A DNA stretch of 64,000 bases. Source: a bacterium (GTDB taxonomy: Bacteria > Pseudomonadota > Gammaproteobacteria > Burkholderiales > Thiobacillaceae). Under the pieces are notes generated by a model, which saw only the letters and a program-made list of their open reading frames with translations, had not been told where the DNA came from and did not search any database. Each line of letters starts with the position of its first letter. The first letter of the stretch is position 1. Positions 13,246-30,516 of this stretch are shown here, piece by piece. Both the position numbers and the translations under genes were made by a program. The stretch is from positions 62,001 to 126,000 of the forward strand of contig WOUQ01000009.1 in the NCBI GenBank assembly GCA_009772925.1. Direction: 5' to 3'.

Positions 13246-14547
13246 TTACGCCTTGCCCACAACCAGCCCCTCCCACTCGCTCGTATACCCGGGTGTCAGC
13301 CTCTCCCTGCGCATTGCCCAGGATGGCCTGCTCCCCTCGGCCGCGAAGAGCAAGGAGCCCTTCCCCATCCGCGCGTTGATGCTATCCAGCGCGGCGAGTA
13401 GTCGATTCCGCCGGTCGTCGTCCGGCGCCGATTCCAGCCCGAACAACTCTCCCTGCCGTACCGTCTGCGGCACCAGCTCCACCAGCATCACGCCCGCCTT
13501 CTTGTAGCGGAAGCCGACCTTGAAGATCCGGTTCAGCCCGCTTCTGGCCGCCTGGATCAGCCGCGCCGTGTCATGCGTGGGGCTGGAGAAGCTCACCAGC
13601 ACCGCCGGGTGGTATTGCGGCTCGTCGGGAATGAAGTGGTTCGTGGAAAGGAAGACCTGGATCCCCCCGGCCGCCTGCCCCTCGTGCCGCAGCTTCACCG
13701 CCGCCCGCGCCGCATAGGTGGACACCGCCTCCAGCAGGTCCGCCCTGGTCGTGAGCAAGTGGCCGAAGCTGCGCGAGGAGACGATCTGCTTCTTTGGCGG
13801 CGGCGCTTCTTCCAGGGGGATGCAGGCGATGCCGTTCAGCTCCCGGATGGTCCGCTCCAGCACCACGCTGAAGCGCTGTCTCAGCGTCTGGGCATCCGCC
13901 ATCTTCAGGTCCTGGGCGGAACGGATGCCCAGTTCCCGCAGCTGCGCCGCCCAGCGCGGGCCGATGCCCCAGACATCCTGCACGTCCACCTCGCTGAAGT
14001 AACGCACCTGCCGCCACGGGGGGAGGTCCTCCAGGTTGCACACACCGAAGGCCTTGAAGTCGGGATGCTTCTTCGCCAGCCGGTTGGCGAGCTTGGCCAG
14101 GGTCTTGGTGGGGCCGATGCCCACCCCCACCGGAATGCCGGTCCACTGCCTGACCTGGTTGCGCATGCGCATGCCGTGCTCGGTCAGGTCCCAATGCCTG
14201 AAGCCGTTGAAGCGCAGGAAGGACTCGTCGATCGAGTACACCTCCTGCTCCGGGCTGTAGCCGGCGATGACGCTCATCATGCGCCGGCTCATGTCGGCAT
14301 AGAGGGTGTAGTTGGAGGACAGCGCCAGCCCCCCGTGGCGCTTGAGCAGGTCGCGGATCTGGAAGTGGGGCTCTCCCATCTTGATGCCCAGCGCCTTGGC
14401 CTCGTCGCTCCTCGCCACGGCGCAGCCGTCGTTGTTGGACAGCACCACCACCGGCCGGCCCTCGAGCGTGGGATCGAACACCCGCTCGCAGGAGACGTAG
14501 AAGTTGTTGCCGTCCACCAGGGCATACAGGTGGGGCGTGCGGGCCAT
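13246..14547 (-). CDS. umuC: Y-family DNA polymerase UmuC
   Basis: Catalytic subunit (433 aa) of a Pol V-type translesion polymerase. N-terminal [20 protein letters not shown] carries the first metal-binding Asp, and [10 protein letters not shown] carries the Asp-Glu pair of the Y-family active site. [19 protein letters not shown] and [18 protein letters not shown] are the family palm and helix-hairpin-helix segments, and a DUF4113-type tail around GLVVGKA ends it. It starts 10 bases after the umuD stop, so they form the usual umuDC operon, expected to be SOS-induced. Confidence 0.95.
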
Positions 14548-21162: not shown

Positions 21163-21568
21163 GCAATCGGCACCGGCTTTGGTTTCAATCGCTTCATAAG
21201 TGGCTGCTCGAAGAAGTGCCATGACACGGACGCAAAGACACAAGTAAGCCCAACCCCCAAAGCCAAGGCCACACTTGGGTTAATCCACGCCAACCTTTTC
21301 AAAGACAATAAAACAGGCAAATGCCAGAGATAGATGCCGTACGAAATCGTCCCAAGGTAGAAAAGAGGGGAGAGTATTTTTCTTGGCACTCCTGTCACTT
21401 TAATTGAGATCGCGAATAGCAGAACCAATGCAAAAGACAGCGCCAAGAGGGAACGCCACATCGTCACCATCAGGGGATAATTCCAGAAACTCTCATAGCG
21501 CCAGTAAATCGCCATAGTCACAGACAGCACGATCACTGCCAGCGCCAAGAAAACGACTTGAACAGATA

Positions 21569-21577
21569 CCCCCCCCC
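21569..21577 (-). repeat. G9 homopolymer at the acyltransferase frameshift
   Basis: Nine G on the coding strand, exactly where the reading frame of the acyltransferase changes. One more base, or two fewer, restores the full frame. Confidence 0.9.
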
Positions 21578-22312
21578 GAGCAACTTCTTACCTAATTCCG
21601 ATCTCACCAGCCTGGCCAGCAGCAAGCCCGCGACGAATTCATCCAACATACCAGGTAGTTGAGTGGCGGCGACAAAAACAGGAAATGGACCCAACTGTGA
21701 AGATTGCTGCACAAACAAAGTAACGCCATATCGCCATGCCCATGCCGTGCCAATAAATACCGCTGCTATTGCCCACCACCTGCCGGTTCGTATCCATGGT
21801 GCAACCAGAAGCATAAGCACGTAAAACTGCATTTCTGTGGCAAGAGACCAGTTGCTGCCATTAATTGCGCCGTGCAAATTGACGTTTAGATTATGGACAA
21901 ACAAGAGGTGTGAACCAAAATTTGTCCAAAAATTAGTGAACAAAAGCTCTGGAGAAATAAATACAACAAACACAAACATGGTCAAGTAGTGCAACGGTAC
22001 GATTCGAGCCACTCTTCGAGAAAAAAACGCACCCTGAAAATTCCACGCACCGCGTTTATCAATTTCAGCGAAGGCCGAAAGCCCAATAACGAAACCGGAA
22101 ATCACGAAAAACAAGTCCACACCCATCCATCCAGCCCTGAACCACAACAACGGGCCAGCGGACGGAAAGCTCTTCCAGTCAAAGAGTTCGATAACGTGAT
22201 AAACGACAACCGATAACGCGGCAAAACCGCGCAGGACGTCAACCGTCTCAAAGTAAGACGGCGGCGTGGATTGTTTTCGAACGGGGTCCCGATTTTCAGC
22301 AGGGCTGATATC

Positions 22313-22321
22313 GGGGGGGGG
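22313..22321 (-). repeat. C9 homopolymer near the acyltransferase start
   Basis: Nine C on the coding strand, overlapping the codons for Pro5-Pro7. Any change other than by three would abolish the protein almost from its start. Confidence 0.85.
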
Positions 22322-22340
22322 ATTCAGGCTCATGTCAGGA

Positions 22341-25300
22341 TTAGATGGTGCTATCGTGCATCGGGCTACGGCTCAGCGAACGCTTGACTGTGCGTTTGAA
22401 ATTGTACGGAACCGCTGAACTGACCCAGCGCAGCGTCGGATGTGTATTCAACCACCACAAACCGCGCAGCGCAGCACGGCGCCAGCCAGTCTTGTTCAAT
22501 GGTCCGCTGACAATCTGTGACTCGTCGAATCCGAATGACAGTTTGCCGCATCGAGGCGGCTTGAGCGCACTTTCCAGCAGGGGCAGGTAATCGCGGTCGT
22601 AGAATCCTGGCTGCGATTTATCGTCAGGGAAAACTGGCGCGCAAACGGCGGTACCGGATTCAAGTGCGCCGATGAAATCACCGATGCGACGATAGAGTTC
22701 GGACACCGGTTCCATGTGATCGAACAGCGTGGCGCAGGCGCGACCCGATAGGCGCTCAGGAAAGGCGCCCAGGTTTGGCGCAATGATCGGCAAGCCCGAT
22801 GCCAGTGCATGGCTCAGCGTATAGCTATAGGTTTCCGGGCACTGGGCGGGGAACAAGATGAGGTCAACCTCATGCTGTTCGATTAGTGCCATTAAATTCT
22901 CGACCTTGTAGGGGCCCGTGGTTTCTACTGCGCTCAATTGCCGGTAGGAGTAGCCGATCAACTTGAAGGAAAAGCGCGCGCGCTCGCTGAGTGCCATTGT
23001 TGCCAACTTCTCGAGGACGTCCGCTCCCTTTTCACGACCAAGTGCACCCAGTACACCAACCACATAGTGTTGCTTAACGACCAGTGGGCGCGGCGCTTGC
23101 CGCACGTTCAGGTACGGCTCTACATGCGGTGCCACGACTTCATGCTTGAACCGGTACATTTCGCCGAACAGGGCTCTGGTGGCATTGCTAGGGAAGATCA
23201 CGCAGTCCGCCTGCTCGATCAGCGGCCGCAGTTTTTCACGCCACTGCGCTGCCGTGACGCCTGTCGGCAGCGGATACAGCGGATTTTGCAGATCATCCAC
23301 GTATTGCCCTGGAAAACGGCCGTCAACATCAGTCAGCGTTGGATTCGCGTTGAGCCAAAAGTAATCGTGTGCTGTCAACAGCGTTATCGCGTGCAGCTCG
23401 CGGGACAGGTTTTGCAGCACTGGATCGAGGTTATAGGTATGGTGGTAATGCACCGCACAGATACCCACCTGCTCCAGTAAATTGCGCAGCCTGGCATAAT
23501 CGTCAGGCATCTTGAACAGCAGCTTGTCGGTCGGCTTGCACGCTCGCAGGCTGAGGCTCACCACGTTGGGACCGTCTTGTGGCGCCAGCACTAGATGAGC
23601 CGCGCCTTGGTCGAAATAGCCAGCCAATTCTTCGATGTGCTGGCCAACACCGCCGCCGAGACCGTGCGACACATGCAGCACTTTCGGCAACGTCAGCTTC
23701 GCCAACAATTGCAGGTAGCGTTCGACGCGCGCCAAGCGTAAGGGGTCGCGCTGGATGAAGGCCTGAACATCGGCGTGATAGTTAGGGTGCAGGCTGTCGA
23801 GCACGCCCATGGCACGATCAATCAGGGCTTGCTTGTCAGTGGAGAAGCTTACGCCGCCCTCATGGAACACATACATATTGGGCGACAGGATGTTGAGCCA
23901 GCCCGCCTTGATCGCGCGCTGGCACAGATCGTTCTCCTCACCGTAGCCACGGCCAAATTTCTCGGAGTTCAAGTAGCCAATTTGGTCTAGACAGGCACGA
24001 CGGATATACATGCAGAAGCCGACGCCAGTCGGCGCTGAGACACACGGCAAATGCGACAGGCGGAACACGGCGTCGATTGTGTGGACGTCGAGATTGAACG
24101 CTAGCGGATTCTCTTCTAGGAAGTTAGGGAAACTGCAGACGGTGGCGTTGTTGGAGAATGGCGTTACGGTAGCGATACGCGGGTGGGAGTATGCCTCCAC
24201 CTGCAAGCGCCTCAGCCAGTCGTCAGGCACGATTACATCGCTGTTCAGCAACACCACGTCTTGCGACAGGAGGTGCGCCATGCCGCGGTTGACGGTGCCC
24301 ACGAAGCCCAGGTTCACCGGGTTTTCGAGCACTTCGAAGCGTCCTGGCCAAATTTCCACCAGCGATTCGAGCATGGCTTGCATACCCTGCTCTGGACTAG
24401 CGTCATTAATGGCCAACAGCACCGCGTCTTTCATCCCCAGCACTCCCGGCATGGCGGCCTCGATGCAGCGGCGCGTCATGTCGATGCCGCGATATACCGG
24501 CAGGATCACCGACACAGTATGGGTAGGTGCAATCGGGTCAGGAACGACGATGTCTGCTGACGCCGCAGCTGCGGGCGACTGACCATCCTTTTTCATGCTC
24601 AGCAACTTCTTGAACGGGGCGGCCGCGCCTGCAATGTCCCCGCGCAGCATGCGCCCCACCCAACGGTAGGGTTTAGTCAACCGCCAGGAGCGGGAGTTGA
24701 TGATGCTCATGAACGCGGCTTCGCGCTCGGTCACCGCTTGGCTCAAGCTGGCGATCTGCCCGTCGCGCTCGGTCACCGCTTGGTTGAGGCTGGCGATCTG
24801 CCCATCCCGCTCGGCCACCGCTTGGCTCAAGCTGGCGATCTGCCCGTCGCGCTCGGTCACCGCTTGGCTCAAGCTGGCGATCTGTCCGTCACGCTCGGTC
24901 ACCGCTTGGCTGTAGCTGGCGATCTGTCCGTTACGCTCAGCCACCGCCTGATTGAGGCTTGCGATATTATCGAGCACTTTAGTACCGCCCAACACCTCAT
25001 GGATATACTGCGGCTTGTGAAGCAGCAATAGCGCTAGGTCATCAATCGTTTTAATAGTATGCAACTGCAAAGTCGATAGCGTTTCCTGCCATGTGCCCAA
25101 GTGATTTCGATGAATGAGCAGCAGCCCGCACTCCCTTGCTTCGCCAAACATGTTGGTTGTTGACCGATTGAAGTTTTCGGGATTAAAGGCGCGACTGACA
25201 TGACCAAAAACCACATAATCCATTCCATGCGCCAAATCTATGATCCGGCCGGCAGCCTGTAGAGAATTGGCCTCCAGAAATATTACTGGTGCATGTTGAC

Positions 25301-25823
25301 GAATTGCCCTTATTCCGCCAACGACTACGTCATACTCCATGCCTTCGACATCAATCTTGATGAAGTCAATTCGGGGCAGTTCGAGGTTTTCCAGCGATTC
25401 TTGCTCGATCACCGTAGTGCTTGCATCACGATCGTCCTCTAATACTTGAGAAGCTCCAAGATTCCCAAGTAAATCTCCCTGCAGCAGGAATTGCGTCTGC
25501 TTCCGAGCACCCAGCGCAACTTGGTAGGTTTTTATATTTGAGTAAGGCGCAAGTTGAGCATTCTTGAATAATTCGCGATAAATTCGCTCGTTCGGTTCGA
25601 AGGCATGTACGATCCCTTGTGCGCCGACCATTTGCGAAAAGGCCCTGGCATGCGTGCCGATAAAGGCACCAATATCGAGAACCGTATCGCCGGGACGCAC
25701 AAAGCGGCTCAGCATGTCGAGTTCCTCTTGTGCCCATTCCCCGTACTCACGCAAGGCATTGAAGATGAGATCATTCTGATCAGGGACAGAAAATTCCCCG
25801 TAGCGGCAGTGCAGGGTTGTCAT
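22341..25823 (-). CDS. FkbM methyltransferase / coiled coil / two-glycosyltransferase fusion protein
   Basis: Very large fusion (1160 aa). Residues 1-245 are an FkbM-type SAM methyltransferase (VLDIGAFIGTHARAF at 48-62, FIKIDVEGMEYDV at about 154-166). Residues 287-368 are six copies of a 14-residue repeat (IASLSQAVTERDGQ type) predicted to be a coiled coil. SRSWRLTKPYRWVGR at 378-391 is a motif often next to glycan-associated coiled coils. Residues 437-680 are a GT2 domain (VSVILPVYRG, VLLNSDVIVPDDWL). Residues 714-1080 are a GT4-like domain (LPKVLHVSHGLGGGVGQH, GVLGALGREKGADVL, FPAQCPETYSYTLSHALASG). It lies 12 bases after wzt. The methyltransferase/coiled coil/Wzt context resembles chain-terminating WbdD systems; specificity of each transferase is unknown. 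Confidence 0.9.
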   Translation of the reverse strand: MTTLHCRYGEFSVPDQNDLIFNALREYGEWAQEELDMLSRFVRPGDTVLDIGAFIGTHARAFSQMVGAQGIVHAFEPNERIYRELFKNAQLAPYSNIKTYQVALGARKQTQFLLQGDLLGNLGASQVLEDDRDASTTVIEQESLENLELPRIDFIKIDVEGMEYDVVVGGIRAIRQHAPVIFLEANSLQAAGRIIDLAHGMDYVVFGHVSRAFNPENFNRSTTNMFGEARECGLLLIHRNHLGTWQETLSTLQLHTIKTIDDLALLLLHKPQYIHEVLGGTKVLDNIASLNQAVAERNGQIASYSQAVTERDGQIASLSQAVTERDGQIASLSQAVAERDGQIASLNQAVTERDGQIASLSQAVTEREAAFMSIINSRSWRLTKPYRWVGRMLRGDIAGAAAPFKKLLSMKKDGQSPAAAASADIVVPDPIAPTHTVSVILPVYRGIDMTRRCIEAAMPGVLGMKDAVLLAINDASPEQGMQAMLESLVEIWPGRFEVLENPVNLGFVGTVNRGMAHLLSQDVVLLNSDVIVPDDWLRRLQVEAYSHPRIATVTPFSNNATVCSFPNFLEENPLAFNLDVHTIDAVFRLSHLPCVSAPTGVGFCMYIRRACLDQIGYLNSEKFGRGYGEENDLCQRAIKAGWLNILSPNMYVFHEGGVSFSTDKQALIDRAMGVLDSLHPNYHADVQAFIQRDPLRLARVERYLQLLAKLTLPKVLHVSHGLGGGVGQHIEELAGYFDQGAAHLVLAPQDGPNVVSLSLRACKPTDKLLFKMPDDYARLRNLLEQVGICAVHYHHTYNLDPVLQNLSRELHAITLLTAHDYFWLNANPTLTDVDGRFPGQYVDDLQNPLYPLPTGVTAAQWREKLRPLIEQADCVIFPSNATRALFGEMYRFKHEVVAPHVEPYLNVRQAPRPLVVKQHYVVGVLGALGREKGADVLEKLATMALSERARFSFKLIGYSYRQLSAVETTGPYKVENLMALIEQHEVDLILFPAQCPETYSYTLSHALASGLPIIAPNLGAFPERLSGRACATLFDHMEPVSELYRRIGDFIGALESGTAVCAPVFPDDKSQPGFYDRDYLPLLESALKPPRCGKLSFGFDESQIVSGPLNKTGWRRAALRGLWWLNTHPTLRWVSSAVPYNFKRTVKRSLSRSPMHDSTI
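24714..24965 (-). repeat. Tandem 42-bp coding repeat, six copies
   Basis: Six consecutive 42-base units, the last slightly short, each encoding a 14-residue (two-heptad) unit. Hydrophobic residues (Ile, Leu, Val) fall at heptad positions. The inner copies are nearly identical in DNA, so gain or loss by recombination is likely; the outer copies are more diverged. Confidence 0.9.
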
Positions 25824-25835
25824 GTTCAGTTCTCT

Positions 25836-27215
25836 CTATGAATTCACCCGGATGGACATGGCCATGTCGTTCATTCCGCAATAACCATGCACTAAGCGGC
25901 TACTAATGACGTCGACTTGAATCGCATCGTGCATCCAGCAGTGTTGAATATGTTCATCGCCCAGCCCCTCCGCAAATGCGACGTTGACAAAGTATCTGCC
26001 TCGGATCAGATGCGGCATGGTGAACTCAAAAATCGCGGTAGCGACGTCGCCTTCAGCAAGTTCAAGTTCGTAGTGCCTGAAGTGCATATCCGTACCCTCC
26101 GCATAGACGTATTCGCCAAGGCTATTTTTGATCATGAAGCCGAAGGCAGGCCTCTGGATTCGCTTATGTGAAAGCACCCGGATAAAGAAACGTACGGACT
26201 GGTCGCCCTTGACGGTCGTTTCGACGTTTTCATGCTTACCAAGAAAGCCCGAATCAATGATTGAGGCGCCGCCGTTGCCAAAGCTCTCGGCTTCAGGTCT
26301 GAACGCCGAGACGGCATAAATCGTCTCAACTTTCATCTCGCCATCATAGAAGCGCTGGCTCCGACCAGCATCCCCAGTTGCGCGGATTTCTTCCGAATTT
26401 GCACTGCCCACGGTAGCAGTCGTCGTTCCCAACTCTATTTGCCGTATCGGGTCCGCGTACAGGTGCTCAAGGTAGAGCTTGCAAATAGTCTCGGCGTCGC
26501 CGAGATGCATTGCCGAGGCATTGGGCATCAACAGTACCGCCTTGTCGCAAAGGCTGAGTACGGAGCCCGTGTCGTGCGATACAAACAATACTGTCCCTTG
26601 TTTTTCCTGGAATGCACGCAGAAACCTCATGCACTTTTGTTGAAAGAAGGCGTCGCCGACTGCGAGCGCCTCATCAATGATCAATATGTCCGCATCCACA
26701 TGGGCTATCACGGCAAAAGCCAATCGAACATACATTCCGCTTGAATAGGTCTTCACCGGCTGGTCGATGTGCCGACCAATATCGGCAAAGGCGGCAATGT
26801 CCTCAAATCGGGCGTCAATTTTGTCTTTGGTCAATCCAAGAACCGACCCATTCAGGTACACGTTTTCACGCCCTGTGAAATCCGGGTTGAAGCCTGAGCC
26901 GAGTTCCAACAGCGCTGCAATGCGCCCATGCGTGACGATGCTGCCGGTGGTTGGGCTGAGCGTGCCGCATATCATTTGCAACAAAGTGGATTTGCCGCTG
27001 CCATTGCGACCGATGATGCCGACGGTTTCGCCTTTTTTGACCTCGAACGAAACATCTTTCAGCGCCCAGAATTCGCGGTAATACTGTTTTGGCGACAAGC
27101 CAACGAAACGCCGGAGCCGTGGTAGCAAGAACTGTTTTAGCCTATCCCGTGGTTGGTCATAGATCTGGTAGCACTTGCTGAGGTTCTCGACCTTGATAGC
27201 GATTTCAGAGGACAT
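25836..27215 (-). CDS. wzt: O-antigen ABC exporter ATP-binding protein Wzt with C-terminal substrate-recognition domain
   Basis: ATPase (459 aa) of the Wzm-Wzt exporter that flips lipid-linked O-polysaccharide to the periplasm. Walker A GIIGRNGSGKSTLL at 67-80, signature YSSGMYVRLAFA at about 157-168, Walker B ILIIDEALAVGD at 177-188, switch His in FVSHDTGS. Beyond about residue 250 it has a roughly 200-residue extension with beta-rich segments (FGFMIKNSLGEYVYAEGTD), which fits the carbohydrate-binding domain of Wzt proteins that recognise a capped chain end. ATG 27215 overlaps the wzm stop by 11 bases. Confidence 0.93.
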   Translation of the reverse strand: MSSEIAIKVENLSKCYQIYDQPRDRLKQFLLPRLRRFVGLSPKQYYREFWALKDVSFEVKKGETVGIIGRNGSGKSTLLQMICGTLSPTTGSIVTHGRIAALLELGSGFNPDFTGRENVYLNGSVLGLTKDKIDARFEDIAAFADIGRHIDQPVKTYSSGMYVRLAFAVIAHVDADILIIDEALAVGDAFFQQKCMRFLRAFQEKQGTVLFVSHDTGSVLSLCDKAVLLMPNASAMHLGDAETICKLYLEHLYADPIRQIELGTTTATVGSANSEEIRATGDAGRSQRFYDGEMKVETIYAVSAFRPEAESFGNGGASIIDSGFLGKHENVETTVKGDQSVRFFIRVLSHKRIQRPAFGFMIKNSLGEYVYAEGTDMHFRHYELELAEGDVATAIFEFTMPHLIRGRYFVNVAFAEGLGDEHIQHCWMHDAIQVDVISSRLVHGYCGMNDMAMSIRVNS

Positions 27216-28023
27216 CGGCAAACCCTCTCCTCGTCTTCTGGAACCACGCAAAGCCCAGCCAGGCAATTCCCAAAGTCACCACACAGTAAATTCCTAGCAT
27301 GTACAAATCCGGCGTCTTGCCCCAGAACAGCACGTCGCGCGTTTGTTCGACCACGGTGGTCAGCGGGTTGAGGTAGAGAATGCGGCGGTAGTCCTCAGGC
27401 AACGCGGTGGCGGGGTAGAAAATGGGGCTGAGGAACATCAAGGCGGTTGTCAGCAAGCCGATGAACTGCGACACGTCGCGCAGGAACACCCCAAGCGATG
27501 CCAAGGCCCAACTCAGGCCCATCAGGAAAAGGCAGAACGGCAGCAGCACCAGCGGCAGATAGAACACGGTGAGGTGCGGAATGCCGAAGAAGAGGGTGTA
27601 GGCAATCAGCCAAACGCCAAGGCTGATCAGGGTGTGAAACAGGGCCGACAGCAGCGCGACAAAGGGAAGAATTTCGAGCGGGAAGACGACCTTCTTCACG
27701 TAGTTGGTGTTGGAGAGAATCAAGCCCGGCGCCCGGTTGATGCACTCGGCAAACAGGTTGAAGACAAGCAGGCCGGCGAAGAGCACCAGCGCAAATTCGG
27801 TTTTCGAGCCACTGCCCCCGCCCCAGCGCGCCTGGAAAACGACGCTGAAAACGAAGGTGTAAACCGCAAGCATGAAGAGCGGATTGAAGAACGACCAGAG
27901 CACGCCGAGGAAGGAGCCGCGGTAGCGGCCCAGCACTTCGCGCTTGGCCGAGGCCTTGATGAGGTCGCGATGGCGCCAGAGGTTGGCGAACATCTCAATG
28001 GGGGAAGCGGAAAAATGACGCAT
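27205..28023 (-). CDS. wzm: O-antigen ABC exporter permease Wzm
   Basis: ABC-2 type membrane permease (272 aa). N-terminal amphipathic region with LIKASAKREVLGRYRGSFLG, about six membrane segments, and the conserved FYPATALPEDYRRILYLNPL loop before the last helices. ATG 28023 overlaps the rfbC stop as ATGA; a TTG one codon upstream is less likely. It works with Wzt to export the polysaccharide. Confidence 0.93.
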   Translation of the reverse strand: MRHFSASPIEMFANLWRHRDLIKASAKREVLGRYRGSFLGVLWSFFNPLFMLAVYTFVFSVVFQARWGGGSGSKTEFALVLFAGLLVFNLFAECINRAPGLILSNTNYVKKVVFPLEILPFVALLSALFHTLISLGVWLIAYTLFFGIPHLTVFYLPLVLLPFCLFLMGLSWALASLGVFLRDVSQFIGLLTTALMFLSPIFYPATALPEDYRRILYLNPLTTVVEQTRDVLFWGKTPDLYMLGIYCVVTLGIAWLGFAWFQKTRRGFADVL

Positions 28024-28568
28024 CAAGCAAAAACCTCCGCGTCAACAAATGCTTTCCCTTGGGCGTCTTTTGCCGAGAGGATGGGCTGGATGCCGGCGGG
28101 CCAATGAATCGCGAGTGTCTCGTCATTCCAGAGAATGCAGCGCTCATGGGCGGGTGCGTAGTAGTCCGTGGTTTTGTAGAGGAACTCGGCGGTATCGCTC
28201 AGCACCACAAAACCGTGGGCAAAGCCTTCGGGAATCCAGAGCTGGCGCTTATTCTCTGCGGAGAGGATCTCGCCCACCCACTGACCGAACGTTTTGCTGC
28301 GTTTTCTGAGGTCGACCGCAACATCGAAGACTTCGCCCTGCACTACGCGAACCAGTTTGCCTTGAGGCTGCTGGATTTGGTAGTGCAGGCCGCGCAGCAC
28401 GTGTTTGGCGCTGCGGCTGTGGTTGTCTTGCACGAACTGCACGGATTTGCCGATGGCTTGTTCAAATTGCGCTTGGTTGAAGCTCTCGAAAAAGAAACCG
28501 CGTTCGTCTCCGAACACCTTGGGTTCGATGAGGATGACATCGGGGATGGCAAGGGGTGCTGCCTTCAT
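28023..28568 (-). CDS. rfbC: dTDP-4-dehydrorhamnose 3,5-epimerase RfbC
   Basis: Cupin-fold epimerase (181 aa) of the dTDP-L-rhamnose route. IPDVILIEPKVFGDERGFFF at the N-terminus, FVQDNHSRSAKHVLRGLHYQ with the catalytic His region, VRVVQGEVFDVAVDLR, and LWIPEGFAHGFVVLSD. Its ATG overlaps the rfbA stop by one base. The final reductase RfbD is not in this operon. Confidence 0.95.
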   Translation of the reverse strand: MKAAPLAIPDVILIEPKVFGDERGFFFESFNQAQFEQAIGKSVQFVQDNHSRSAKHVLRGLHYQIQQPQGKLVRVVQGEVFDVAVDLRKRSKTFGQWVGEILSAENKRQLWIPEGFAHGFVVLSDTAEFLYKTTDYYAPAHERCILWNDETLAIHWPAGIQPILSAKDAQGKAFVDAEVFA

Positions 28569-29449
28569 CAGAATACGTTTTCCTTGAGGATTCTCAGCAG
28601 ATACTGGCCATAACCGTTTTTGGTCAGGGGCTGGGCGAGTGCCTGGAGTTGCTCGGCGTTGATCCAGCCCTGGCGGAAGGCGATTTCTTCCGGACAGGCC
28701 ACTTTGAGGCCCTGGCGGTTTTCCAGGGTGGCAATGAACTGGCTGGCATCGAGCAGGGATTCGTGGGTGCCGGTATCCAGCCAGGCGTAGCCCCGGCCCA
28801 TGATCTCTACATTGAGTCGGCCCTGTTCGAGATACAAGAGGTTGAGGTCGGTGATTTCCAGCTCGCCGCGCGTCGATGGCTTGAGCGTTTTGGCCAGTCC
28901 GACCACGCGGTTGTCGTAGAAATAGAGCCCGGTAACGGCATAGCTGGATTTGGGCTGCTCGGGTTTTTCTTCCAGCGACAAGACTTTGCCTTGCGAATCG
29001 AACTCGGCCACGCCGTAGCGTTCGGGATCGTGCACGTGGTAGGCGAACACGCTGGCGCCGTCGGTGCGGGCCATGGCGCTGGCCAGCAGGTGGTGAAAAT
29101 CGTGGCCGTAGAAGATGTTGTCGCCCAGTACCAGCGCCGAGGGTTGGTTGCCGATGAATTCCTCGCCGATCAGGAAGGCTTGCGCCAGGCCGTCCGGGCT
29201 GGGCTGCACGGCGTATTGCAGGTTAAGGCCCCACTGACTACCGTCCCCGAGCAACTGCTGGAAACGCGGCGTGTCTTGCGGCGTGCTGATGATGAGCACG
29301 TCGCGAATGCCCGCCAGCATTAAGGTGCTGAGCGGGTAGTAGATCATGGGCTTATCGAACACCGGCAGCAGTTGTTTGCTGATAGCGAGCGTAGCCGGGT
29401 GCAGGCGGGTGCCGGAACCGCCGGCGAGGATGATGCCTTTGCGGGTCAT
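28568..29449 (-). CDS. rfbA: Glucose-1-phosphate thymidylyltransferase RfbA
   Basis: Makes dTDP-glucose from dTTP and glucose-1-phosphate (293 aa). The nucleotide-binding signature [20 protein letters not shown] is followed by [33 protein letters not shown] and [20 protein letters not shown]. Full length. The start overlaps the rfbB stop as ATGA. Confidence 0.96.
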
Positions 29450-30516
29450 GCGTTTCGCCCTGTGTAGTTCTTTTCAAGCCATTCGCGATAGGTGCCGGAT
29501 TGGACGTTGCTCACCCAGGCCTGATTGTCCAGATACCACTGCACCGTCTTGCTGATGCCGGTCTCGAAGGTTTCGGCCGGCTTCCAGCCCAGTTCGCTTT
29601 CGAGCTTGCGGGCGTCGATGGCGTAGCGGCGATCATGGCCAGGGCGATCGGCGACGTAGGTGATCTGTTCCTTGTACGGCTTGCCGTCGGCGCGGGGGCG
29701 GAGTTCGTCGAGCAGGGCGCAAACGGTGTGGACGATCTCGAGGTTGGGCTTTTCATTCCAGCCGCCGATGTTGTAGACCTCGCCTATGTGGCCTGCATCC
29801 AATACGCGGCGGATGGCGCTGCAATGGTCTTTGACGTAGAGCCAGTCGCGGATTTGCTGGCCGTCGCCATACACGGGCAGGGGCTTGCCTGCCAGGGCGT
29901 TGACGATCATCAGCGGGATGAGCTTTTCGGGGAAGTGGTAGGGGCCGTAGTTGTTGCTGCAGTTTGTCGTGAGTACCGGCAAGCCGTAGGTGTGGTGGTA
30001 GGCACGAACCAGATGGTCGCTGGCGGCCTTGCTGGCGGAATACGGGCTATTCGGTTCGTAACGGTGTGCTTCGGTGAAGGCGGGGTCGTCCTTGCCGAGC
30101 GAGCCGTAAACTTCATCGGTGGAAACGTGCAGGAAGCGGAAGGATTGCCTGGCGTCGCTTTGCAGACCACCCCAGTAGGCACGGACTGCTTCCAGCAAAC
30201 GGAAGGTGCCGACGATGTTGGTCTGGATGAAGTCTTCCGGGCCGTGGATGCTGCGATCGACGTGGCTTTCGGCAGCAAAATTGACGATAGCGCGCGGCTG
30301 GTGTTTCGCAAGCAGGTCTGCTACCAGCGCTGAATCTCCGATATCACCCTGCACGAAGACATGACGGGGATCACCATTGAGGCTTTGCAGGTTTTCGCGA
30401 TTGCCTGCATAGGTGAGCTTGTCGAGATTGATGACCGGCTCATCGGACTGTGCCAGCCAGTCGAGCACGAAGTTGCTGCCAATGAAGCCGGCACCGCCCG
30501 TTACAAGGATGCTCAT
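29446..30516 (-). CDS. rfbB: dTDP-glucose 4,6-dehydratase RfbB
   Basis: SDR enzyme (356 aa) giving dTDP-4-keto-6-deoxyglucose. [19 protein letters not shown] at the N-terminus, [20 protein letters not shown], the active-site [11 protein letters not shown], and [15 protein letters not shown] with the catalytic Tyr-Lys. ATG 30516 overlaps the stop of a 43-codon upstream ORF as ATGA and has no good Shine-Dalgarno of its own, so translation may depend on that ORF. Confidence 0.96.

What the first reader, a model, noticed from the sequence alone, without database searches (positions are those of the whole stretch)
24714..24965. Tandem-repeat coiled coil that could act as an adjustable O-antigen chain-length ruler
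Seen: six 42-bp coding repeats give a 14-residue (two-heptad) coiled coil between an FkbM methyltransferase and two glycosyltransferase domains, in an operon with Wzm and a Wzt that has a C-terminal domain. Established: in E. coli O9a, WbdD is a chain terminator whose coiled-coil length sets polymer length, and Wzt-CBD recognises the cap. Inference: near-identical repeats in the DNA would let copy number, hence ruler length and O-chain length, change by recombination in a single genetic step.
Basis: partly seen in the sequence, partly recalled or inferred. Interest (0 to 1): 0.75.

Follow-up and report, generated by a model that had tools for sequence, protein, structure and literature searches.

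The report
O-antigen cap enzyme with repeat ruler
A bacterial gene joins a probable sugar-chain capping enzyme to chain-building enzymes through a rod made of near-identical repeats, and related genes suggest that cap enzyme, rod and matching exporter part can be swapped together as one cassette.

Summary
The repeats are real: an 1160-aa minus-strand protein has an FkbM methyltransferase, five full and one partial 14-aa (42-bp) units, then GT2 and GT-B domains, directly after wzm-wzt. AlphaFold gives one 94-residue helix. The layout is that of K. pneumoniae O7 ORF6 and WbbB (terminator, coil, polymerase), so chain terminator plus ruler is the best reading.

Copy-number change is not shown. The one close relative (98% identical protein) also has six units; its units 4-5 differ, by conversion or misassembly. 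Unit number varies only among distant homologs.

The stronger result is different. A second relative keeps 90-94% identical DNA in wzm, the first part of wzt and the GT tail, but has another head (methyltransferase plus probable kinase), another coil and another Wzt cap-binding domain. The switch points lie in wzt and at the coil's end. In 17 loci Wzt (C-domain and NBD) tends to follow head type; the GT tail (12 loci) does not. Eight loci carry sulfotransferase-like heads or neighbouring genes; in the five with a Wzt C-domain these domains group together, which predicts sulfate caps. Verdict: new variant of a known kind.

The parts
22341..25823 (-). FkbM-coil-GT2-GT-B gene, 1160 aa
25236..25676 (-). 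FkbM methyltransferase domain (aa 50-196), proposed cap-adding head
   Evidence: Pfam PF05050 1.3e-16; TIGR01444 88.9 bits, cut-off 37.7; Foldseek best PDB match by E-value 2py6 FkbM, E 2.6e-8, TM-score 0.32-0.33; motifs aligned
24696..24977 (-). continuous helix aa 283-376, proposed coiled-coil ruler (about 14 nm if fully helical)
   Evidence: AlphaFold2; length is inference from 94 residues at 1.5 angstrom
24708..24959 (-). tandem array: five full 42-bp units and one partial
24642..24698 (-). SRSWRLTKPYRW segment and short helix (383-393), possible membrane or complex anchor
   Evidence: a like segment follows the coil in 24 of the 28 coil genes (pattern match); role inferred
23982..24512 (-). 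GT2 domain (aa 438-614)
   Evidence: Pfam
22743..23654 (-). GT-B domain (aa 724-1027)
   Evidence: Pfam
25836..27215 (-). wzt; C-terminal cap-binding domain about 25839-26465
   Evidence: PF00005 and PF14524
27205..28026 (-). wzm, ABC-2 permease
   Evidence: PF01061
24722..26650 (.). segment without a blastn match in L113, flanked by 90-93% identical DNA: later part of wzt, head and coil (cassette); the inner edge lies between about 24718 and 24782
28023..30516 (-). rmlC, rmlA, rmlB (dTDP-rhamnose genes)
   Evidence: PF00908; TIGR01207 and TIGR01181 above cut-off
21533..22333 (-). acyltransferase gene, with no counterpart in L113 between the same neighbours
   Evidence: PF01757
18259..19512 (-). 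WecA-like initiating phosphoglycosyltransferase
   Evidence: PF00953

Best explanation
The protein is a one-chain O-antigen assembly enzyme. Its GT2 and GT-B tail (related to the tail of a WbbB-type protein, so possibly a rhamnose/GlcNAc polymer) extends a lipid-linked chain at the membrane. The 14-aa repeat coil holds an FkbM methyltransferase at a distance, so only a chain long enough to reach it is methylated and stopped. Wzt's C-domain recognises the methyl cap and Wzm-Wzt exports the chain. In evolution, head, coil and Wzt C-domain can move together as a cap cassette while the polymerase tail stays. Shown here: the architecture, the continuous helix, one replaced segment, and the association of Wzt with head type. 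Inferred: the chemistry, the termination, the ruler effect and the identity of the polymer.
For: Domain order and operon. Long helix and FkbM fold. Same format as K. pneumoniae O7 ORF6, where the head was shown to terminate the chain (PMC11231755; passages, first parts of sections 11 and 13). L113: 90-94% identical DNA around a replaced later-wzt + head + coil segment; its Wzt C-domain is 24% identical to the window's but 58% to that of L145, which has the same head type and an unrelated tail. Nearest-neighbour test over 17 loci: Wzt C-domain same head class 10 of 13 eligible, NBD 9 of 13; GT tail, in the 12 loci where I cut one out, 1 of 7 (permutation means 1.5, 1.5, 0.9). Of four loci without a known head, grouped by Wzt and then searched, L099 has a sulfotransferase and L111 a GT99 gene beside wzt, as expected; L110 and L143 gave no such support. 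Six loci found by the L113 head alone all have wzm-wzt upstream, and 5 of 6 Wzt C-domains match the same class best. Of 13 other loci with a Wzt C-domain like the window's, 11 carry a methyltransferase-headed protein at or near wzt, 1 is weak, 1 has an acyltransferase next. The tail is 41% identical to that of an E. coli plasmid protein with a GT99 head.
Against: None of those 13 loci showed an FkbM head. The one other FkbM-coil protein noticed (L221) lies in a 44-kb virus-classed record with no Wzt match (possibly a fragment). The coil also follows plain glycosyltransferases (L108, L109, and L143 with the SWR segment), so it does not mark a terminator by itself. Some coil-bearing loci have a Wzt with almost no C-domain (L100, L105, L106, L138). 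The NBD follows head type almost as well as the C-domain, so cap recognition need not be the cause, and related loci are not independent. L110 found no head, and L143 has only a weak methyltransferase about 1.3 kb beyond wzt although its Wzt C-domain was weakly nearest the MT-kinase class. L113 is a MAG contig, so a chimeric assembly cannot be ruled out. No enzyme activity or polysaccharide structure is known.
Confidence: 0.68

Rival explanations
1. Adjustable ruler: recombination between the 42-bp units changes coil length, and thus O-chain length, in one step, and this is a selected function.
For: Units 1-5 are 76-93% identical in pairs. Homologous coils hold 0 to 8 recognisable units; 12 of the 18 genes with two or more step by exactly 14 residues throughout. 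The offset from last unit to SWR is 6 modulo 7 in 13 of 15 genes. Units within a gene share codons more than units between genes, 576/803 against 3539/6381, over 42 units of 11 genes. In L112, 7 of the 11 differing positions between 23800 and 28800 (6 substitutions and a one-base gap) fall in units 4-5.
Against: L112 has the same six units. No two close relatives with the same head were found to differ in number. Codon bias explains part of the within-gene likeness, and L104 (2/9) and L145 (2/5) go the other way. The stretch 23800-28800 was chosen after seeing the data: a bigger cluster, 29 differences, lies outside the array at 23400-23799. The L112 differences, with a frameshift, may be short-read misassembly. 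I lowered this from 0.25 to 0.22 after rechecking these counts.
Confidence: 0.22
2. The FkbM head is not the terminator: it methylates internal or branch sugars, and the coil only tethers it to the polymerase.
For: FkbM enzymes act on many substrates (general knowledge). L221 has FkbM-coil without a Wzt match in its record.
Against: Head changes together with the cap-binding part of Wzt in L113. Heads in this position elsewhere include GT99, a proven terminator in WbbB (PMC9587256), and a probable MT-kinase like that proven in O7 ORF6 (PMC11231755).
Confidence: 0.2
3. The coil is only an oligomerisation and membrane tether; its repeats come from neutral slippage and its length does not matter.
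For: Coil length and unit number vary freely between homologs, down to one recognisable unit in L113 and none in seven of 28 genes; the coil also occurs behind plain GTs.
Against: In WbdD, insertions and truncations of the coil change chain length (review PMC5082667, passages); heptad phase to the SWR segment is kept in 13 of 15 genes.
Confidence: 0.25

Closest known systems
Klebsiella pneumoniae O7 ORF6 (MT-kinase, coil, two GT2)
   Same: Terminator head, central coil and two GT modules on one chain, with rml genes, wzm and wzt in the cluster (PMC11231755)
   Different: Head is methyltransferase plus AmiN-like kinase, not FkbM; tail is two GT2 modules, here GT2 plus GT-B. No direct sequence comparison with ORF6 was made.
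WbbB of Raoultella terrigena / K. pneumoniae O12
   Same: N-terminal terminator, helical spacer, two polymerising GTs (PMC9587256). An E. coli plasmid protein with a GT99 head (best PDB matches 8cse and 5fa0) has a tail 41% identical to this one
   Different: GT99 beta-Kdo head instead of FkbM; the plasmid protein L114 has no recognisable repeat unit
WbdD of E. coli O9a
   Same: Methyl-type cap and coil as ruler (PMC5082667, PMC11231755); cap reading by Wzt's C-domain (PMC9445017)
   Different: WbdD has MT plus kinase and no GTs; polymerase WbdA is separate; the passages I saw report no tandem DNA repeat
Aquifex aeolicus Wzm-Wzt
   Same: Wzt with a domain that binds a 3-O-methyl cap between CBD and NBD (PMC9445017, passages)
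   Different: Its methyltransferase was not compared here

Membership tests
Coiled-coil chain terminators of ABC-dependent O-antigen systems | candidate terminating enzyme at the distal end of a long helix, separated from the GTs | tested here: met
   FkbM, helix 283-376, GTs; oligomeric coiled coil itself not modelled
Coiled-coil chain terminators of ABC-dependent O-antigen systems | beside wzm and a wzt with a C-terminal cap-binding domain | tested here: met
   PF01061, PF00005, PF14524
Coiled-coil chain terminators of ABC-dependent O-antigen systems | head adds a non-reducing-end cap that stops growth | not testable with these tools
   needs enzyme assay or NMR
Coiled-coil chain terminators of ABC-dependent O-antigen systems | coil length sets chain length | not testable with these tools
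   needs LPS or in vitro data
WbdD | MT plus kinase head without GT domains | tested here: not met
   FkbM only, GT tail present
WbbB | GT99 Kdo-transferase head | tested here: not met
   GT99 is found in L114 and L111 instead
WbbB | polymerising GT tail making Rha-GlcNAc | tested here: inconclusive
   41% identity to the tail of GT99-headed L114; WbbB's own full sequence was not compared
FkbM methyltransferase | FkbM domain with its conserved motifs | tested here: met

The most novel reading that the evidence does not exclude
The repeat coil is the joint of an exchangeable cap cassette. One recombination event, with one end in wzt and the other at the coil, replaces cap enzyme, ruler length and cap-reading transporter domain together and leaves the polymerase in place, so a strain changes O-chain cap and length at once. 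The cassette repertoire includes a cap class not in the papers found: sulfated ends made by sulfotransferase heads and read by their own Wzt C-domain group.
Probability: 0.4. Interest if true: 0.78.

Novelty: new variant of a known kind. Interest (0 to 1): 0.62.

Why it matters
If right, cap chemistry of ABC-exported O-antigens could be predicted from Wzt sequence, sulfate would join the list of proposed caps, and the natural replacement, L113 against window, gives a ready test of cap, ruler and transporter matching. It also gives a set of homologous coils of graded length for testing the ruler model.

Tried and rejected
Copy-number comparison between strains: only L112 was close enough over the whole protein; no reads were available. 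AlphaFold of the L113 head alone (one sequence) gave pLDDT 34.5 and was discarded; a search for viral relatives of that head found none, so the kinase reading rests on domain order, a weak 7pd7 match (E 0.0037) and the conserved FDxIPQNI / IDxEW pattern set beside the O7 paper. Profile searches of that head against the PDB gave methyltransferases for the first half and no kinase for the second. The first multi-domain alignment (A1) misaligned the FkbM pieces and was not used for folding. The L102 head gave no Pfam match at E 1, so its class is open, although its Wzt C-domain is nearest the sulfotransferase group. Papers not held: PMC5321029, PMC4650267 and the JBC review, so WbbB and WbdD details come from other papers. 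A coil confined to one bacterial family was rejected: the coil query matches genomes of several families of the order.

Full report
Observation. The array is real and far beyond chance. It codes for residues 289-372 of an 1160-aa minus-strand protein, with five full 14-residue units and one partial. Pfam finds FkbM, GT2 and GT-B domains. wzt with a C-terminal domain, wzm, rmlC, rmlA and rmlB precede the gene; an acyltransferase, a GT2, an epimerase, a WecA-like initiator and a sugar dehydratase follow. AlphaFold2 on residues 1-394 gives mean pLDDT 87.8 with one helix at 283-376. Its best Foldseek match in the PDB by E-value is 2py6, an FkbM methyltransferase (E 2.6e-8; TM-score only 0.32-0.33, the model including the coil). 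Each 14-residue unit places V and I at one core position and L and R at the other, a two-heptad pattern read by eye.

Closest systems. PMC11231755 (passages and the first parts of sections 11 and 13) describes K. pneumoniae O7 ORF6 as methyltransferase-kinase, coil, two GTs, with the head shown to terminate the chain, and says that the strategy is widespread in ABC-dependent systems. PMC9587256 (passages) says that WbbB's two C-terminal GTs make a Rha-GlcNAc repeat behind a GT99 Kdo terminator and a helical spacer. PMC9445017 (passages) lists caps as methyl, (methyl)phosphate or a sugar such as Kdo, bound between the Wzt C-domain and NBD. The window's GT tail is 41% identical to that of an E. 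coli plasmid protein, L114, whose head is GT99 (best PDB matches 8cse and 5fa0) and which also follows rml genes, wzm and wzt. So a Rha/GlcNAc polymer is a fair guess, not a result.

Relatives of the whole protein. In 117 genomes of the family (E up to 1e-30, at most 6 candidates scored per genome) and 399 of the order (E up to 1e-60, 2 candidates scored), no listed match of another genome covered both FkbM head and GT tail. One scan of GTDB species genomes gave two close relatives. L112 (MAG labelled Lautropia sp. SCN 69-89) is 98% identical over the protein. It has six units too. Units 1-3 and 6 are identical to the window's; units 4 and 5 differ at 7 positions (6 substitutions and a one-base gap that breaks the frame), all of which make them like unit 3 apart from the gap. 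Between 23800 and 28800 there are 11 differing positions in all, but a larger cluster of 29 lies at 23400-23799, outside the array, so clustering as such is not peculiar to the repeats. Conversion within the array or misassembly would both explain units 4-5; I cannot tell which. Beyond about 28800 identity falls (91.6% over the next matched 3.4 kb, 86% over 11 kb), so the block looks recently transferred between species.

The natural replacement. L113 (MAG labelled Nitrospira, a label that may be a binning error) matches the window at 90% from 29000 down to 26650, then has no blastn match until 24782 (full identity from about 24718), then matches at 93% down to 22292 and at 94% from 21163 to 18474; the acyltransferase gene has no counterpart. 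The unmatched segment holds the rest of wzt after its ABC_tran match, the head and the coil. The L113 head is a methyltransferase followed by a domain of about 250 residues, most likely the kinase type of O7 ORF6 (no direct comparison made). Wzt C-domains of window and L113 are 24% identical, their GT tails 93%. L145 has the L113 head type (E about 1e-179) and a 58% identical Wzt C-domain, but an unrelated tail. A chimeric MAG contig cannot be ruled out, but L145 and the loci below show the same head and Wzt C-domain together.

The wider pattern. The coil query matched 8 of 117, 17 of 399 and 11 of 369 genomes at family, order and class (own genome counted in each). I fetched 31 matching stretches with flanks (matches in G130, G806 and contig C25 of G182 were not fetched). 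In 12 of the 31 the coil protein lies directly behind wzt: L092, L093, L094, L100-L104, L138, L139, L144, L145. Heads differ: Methyltransf_11, _24 and _23, MT-kinase type, sulfotransferases, and one unknown. Sulfotransferase-like heads or stand-alone genes are L092, L093, L099, L101, L105, L107, L135 and L138; L093 and L105 are below Pfam's cut-off and L138 is assigned by phmmer only. Five of these (L092, L093, L099, L101, L107) have a Wzt C-domain, and all five group together; L105 and L138 have a Wzt almost without one, and no Wzt was seen for L135. In the 17 loci with a Wzt C-domain and a nearby head, the nearest neighbour by C-domain has the same head class in 10 of 13 eligible, by NBD in 9 of 13; by GT tail (12 loci) in 1 of 7. 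So wzt as a whole, not only its C-domain, tends to follow the head. L099 and L111, whose heads I had looked for because of their Wzt, are among the 17.

Further checks. Four loci without a known head were grouped by Wzt and then searched with head queries: L099 and L111 had the expected sulfotransferase and GT99 genes (confirmed by Pfam); L110 had none, and L143 had only a weak methyltransferase about 1.3 kb beyond wzt, not the class its weak Wzt match named. Six loci found by the L113 head in 250 genomes all had wzm-wzt upstream (in L239 about 0.9 kb away); in 5 of 6 the C-domain matched L113/L145 best, L242, with a shorter head, did not. A search of 280 genomes with the window's own Wzt C-domain gave 13 others: 11 with a methyltransferase-headed protein at or near wzt (in L268 about 0.95 kb away), L267 weak and under cut-off, L265 with an acyltransferase next and a methyltransferase-like ORF further on. 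None showed an FkbM, sulfotransferase, GT99 or MT-kinase head. Three of the 13 (L103, L104, L139) were already in the 17.

The coil as a repeat module. Of 28 coil genes examined with one scoring threshold of mine, 18 have two or more units, 12 of them in steps of exactly 14; three have one (among them L113) and seven none. Examples: 2 in L103, 3 in L100, 4 in L094, 6 in the window, 7 in L092, 8 in L093 with an interruption; L108 and L109 have mostly 21-residue steps. In the 15 genes with at least two units and a SWR segment, 13 keep the same heptad phase between last unit and SWR; three genes without a SWR match were left out, and homology makes the genes non-independent. Codons are shared more within genes than between (72% against 55%, 42 units of 11 chosen genes; codon bias not corrected; L104 and L145 go the other way). 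Period-42 DNA arrays appear in several of these genes, such as L100 at 100% match. So arrays seem to arise and turn over repeatedly, but change of number within one lineage is not shown.

Print search. A search for sulfotransferase with O-antigen, Wzt and coiled-coil found no paper. Looser ones (listings, 15 of 19 and 12 of 17 shown) include A. salmonicida, where a sulfotransferase gene is listed between wzt and wbbB with unknown role and no sulfate seen in the O-chain (PMC4483657, passages); that fits with, but also warns against, the sulfate reading. Of papers with three of FkbM, O antigen, ABC transporter and chain termination, the 15 of 24 listed hold no FkbM, PMC11231755 and PMC9445017 among them. 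A search on recombination, Wzt, coiled-coil and domain swap gave three papers that looked unrelated by title. These searches cover open papers only.

Judgement. Terminator with a coil ruler: likely. Adjustable by copy number: open, and lowered from 0.25 to 0.22 on rechecking. Cassette exchange of head, coil and Wzt C-domain: one clear case plus a consistent wider pattern, and the most useful outcome.

Noticed in passing
L114 (plasmid NZ_CP073948.1, 29546-43759): A plasmid-borne O-antigen-like cluster (rml genes, wzm, wzt, GT99-GT2-GT-B protein). 170 plasmid records, 17 of them Escherichia, have some match to the window protein; the 15 listed all match its tail.
   Followed up: partly
window 21605-28800 against L112: Block with about 52 differing positions in 7.2 kb against another genome, while the DNA beyond 28800 is only 86-92% identical: a recent transfer of the O-antigen region with one end in rmlA.
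   Followed up: partly
L113 / contig VGXE01000011.1: MAG labelled Nitrospira carries a locus 90-94% identical to the window; a further 20 kb of that contig (20000-39999) gave no match to the window. Transfer or binning error, not settled.
   Followed up: no
L221 (IMGVR_UViG_2818991450_000004): FkbM-coil-SWR protein in a virus-classed 44-kb record with no Wzt match.
   Followed up: partly
L100, L105, L106, L138: Coil-bearing proteins with cap-type heads whose nearby Wzt has almost no C-terminal domain (9-20 residues).
   Followed up: no
L102:5352-6341: About 330-aa head with no Pfam match in front of the repeat coil, next to a Wzt nearest the sulfotransferase group.
   Followed up: partly
window 13246-14547, minus strand: Y-family polymerase-like gene (IMS, DUF4113) beside the polysaccharide region.
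   Followed up: no
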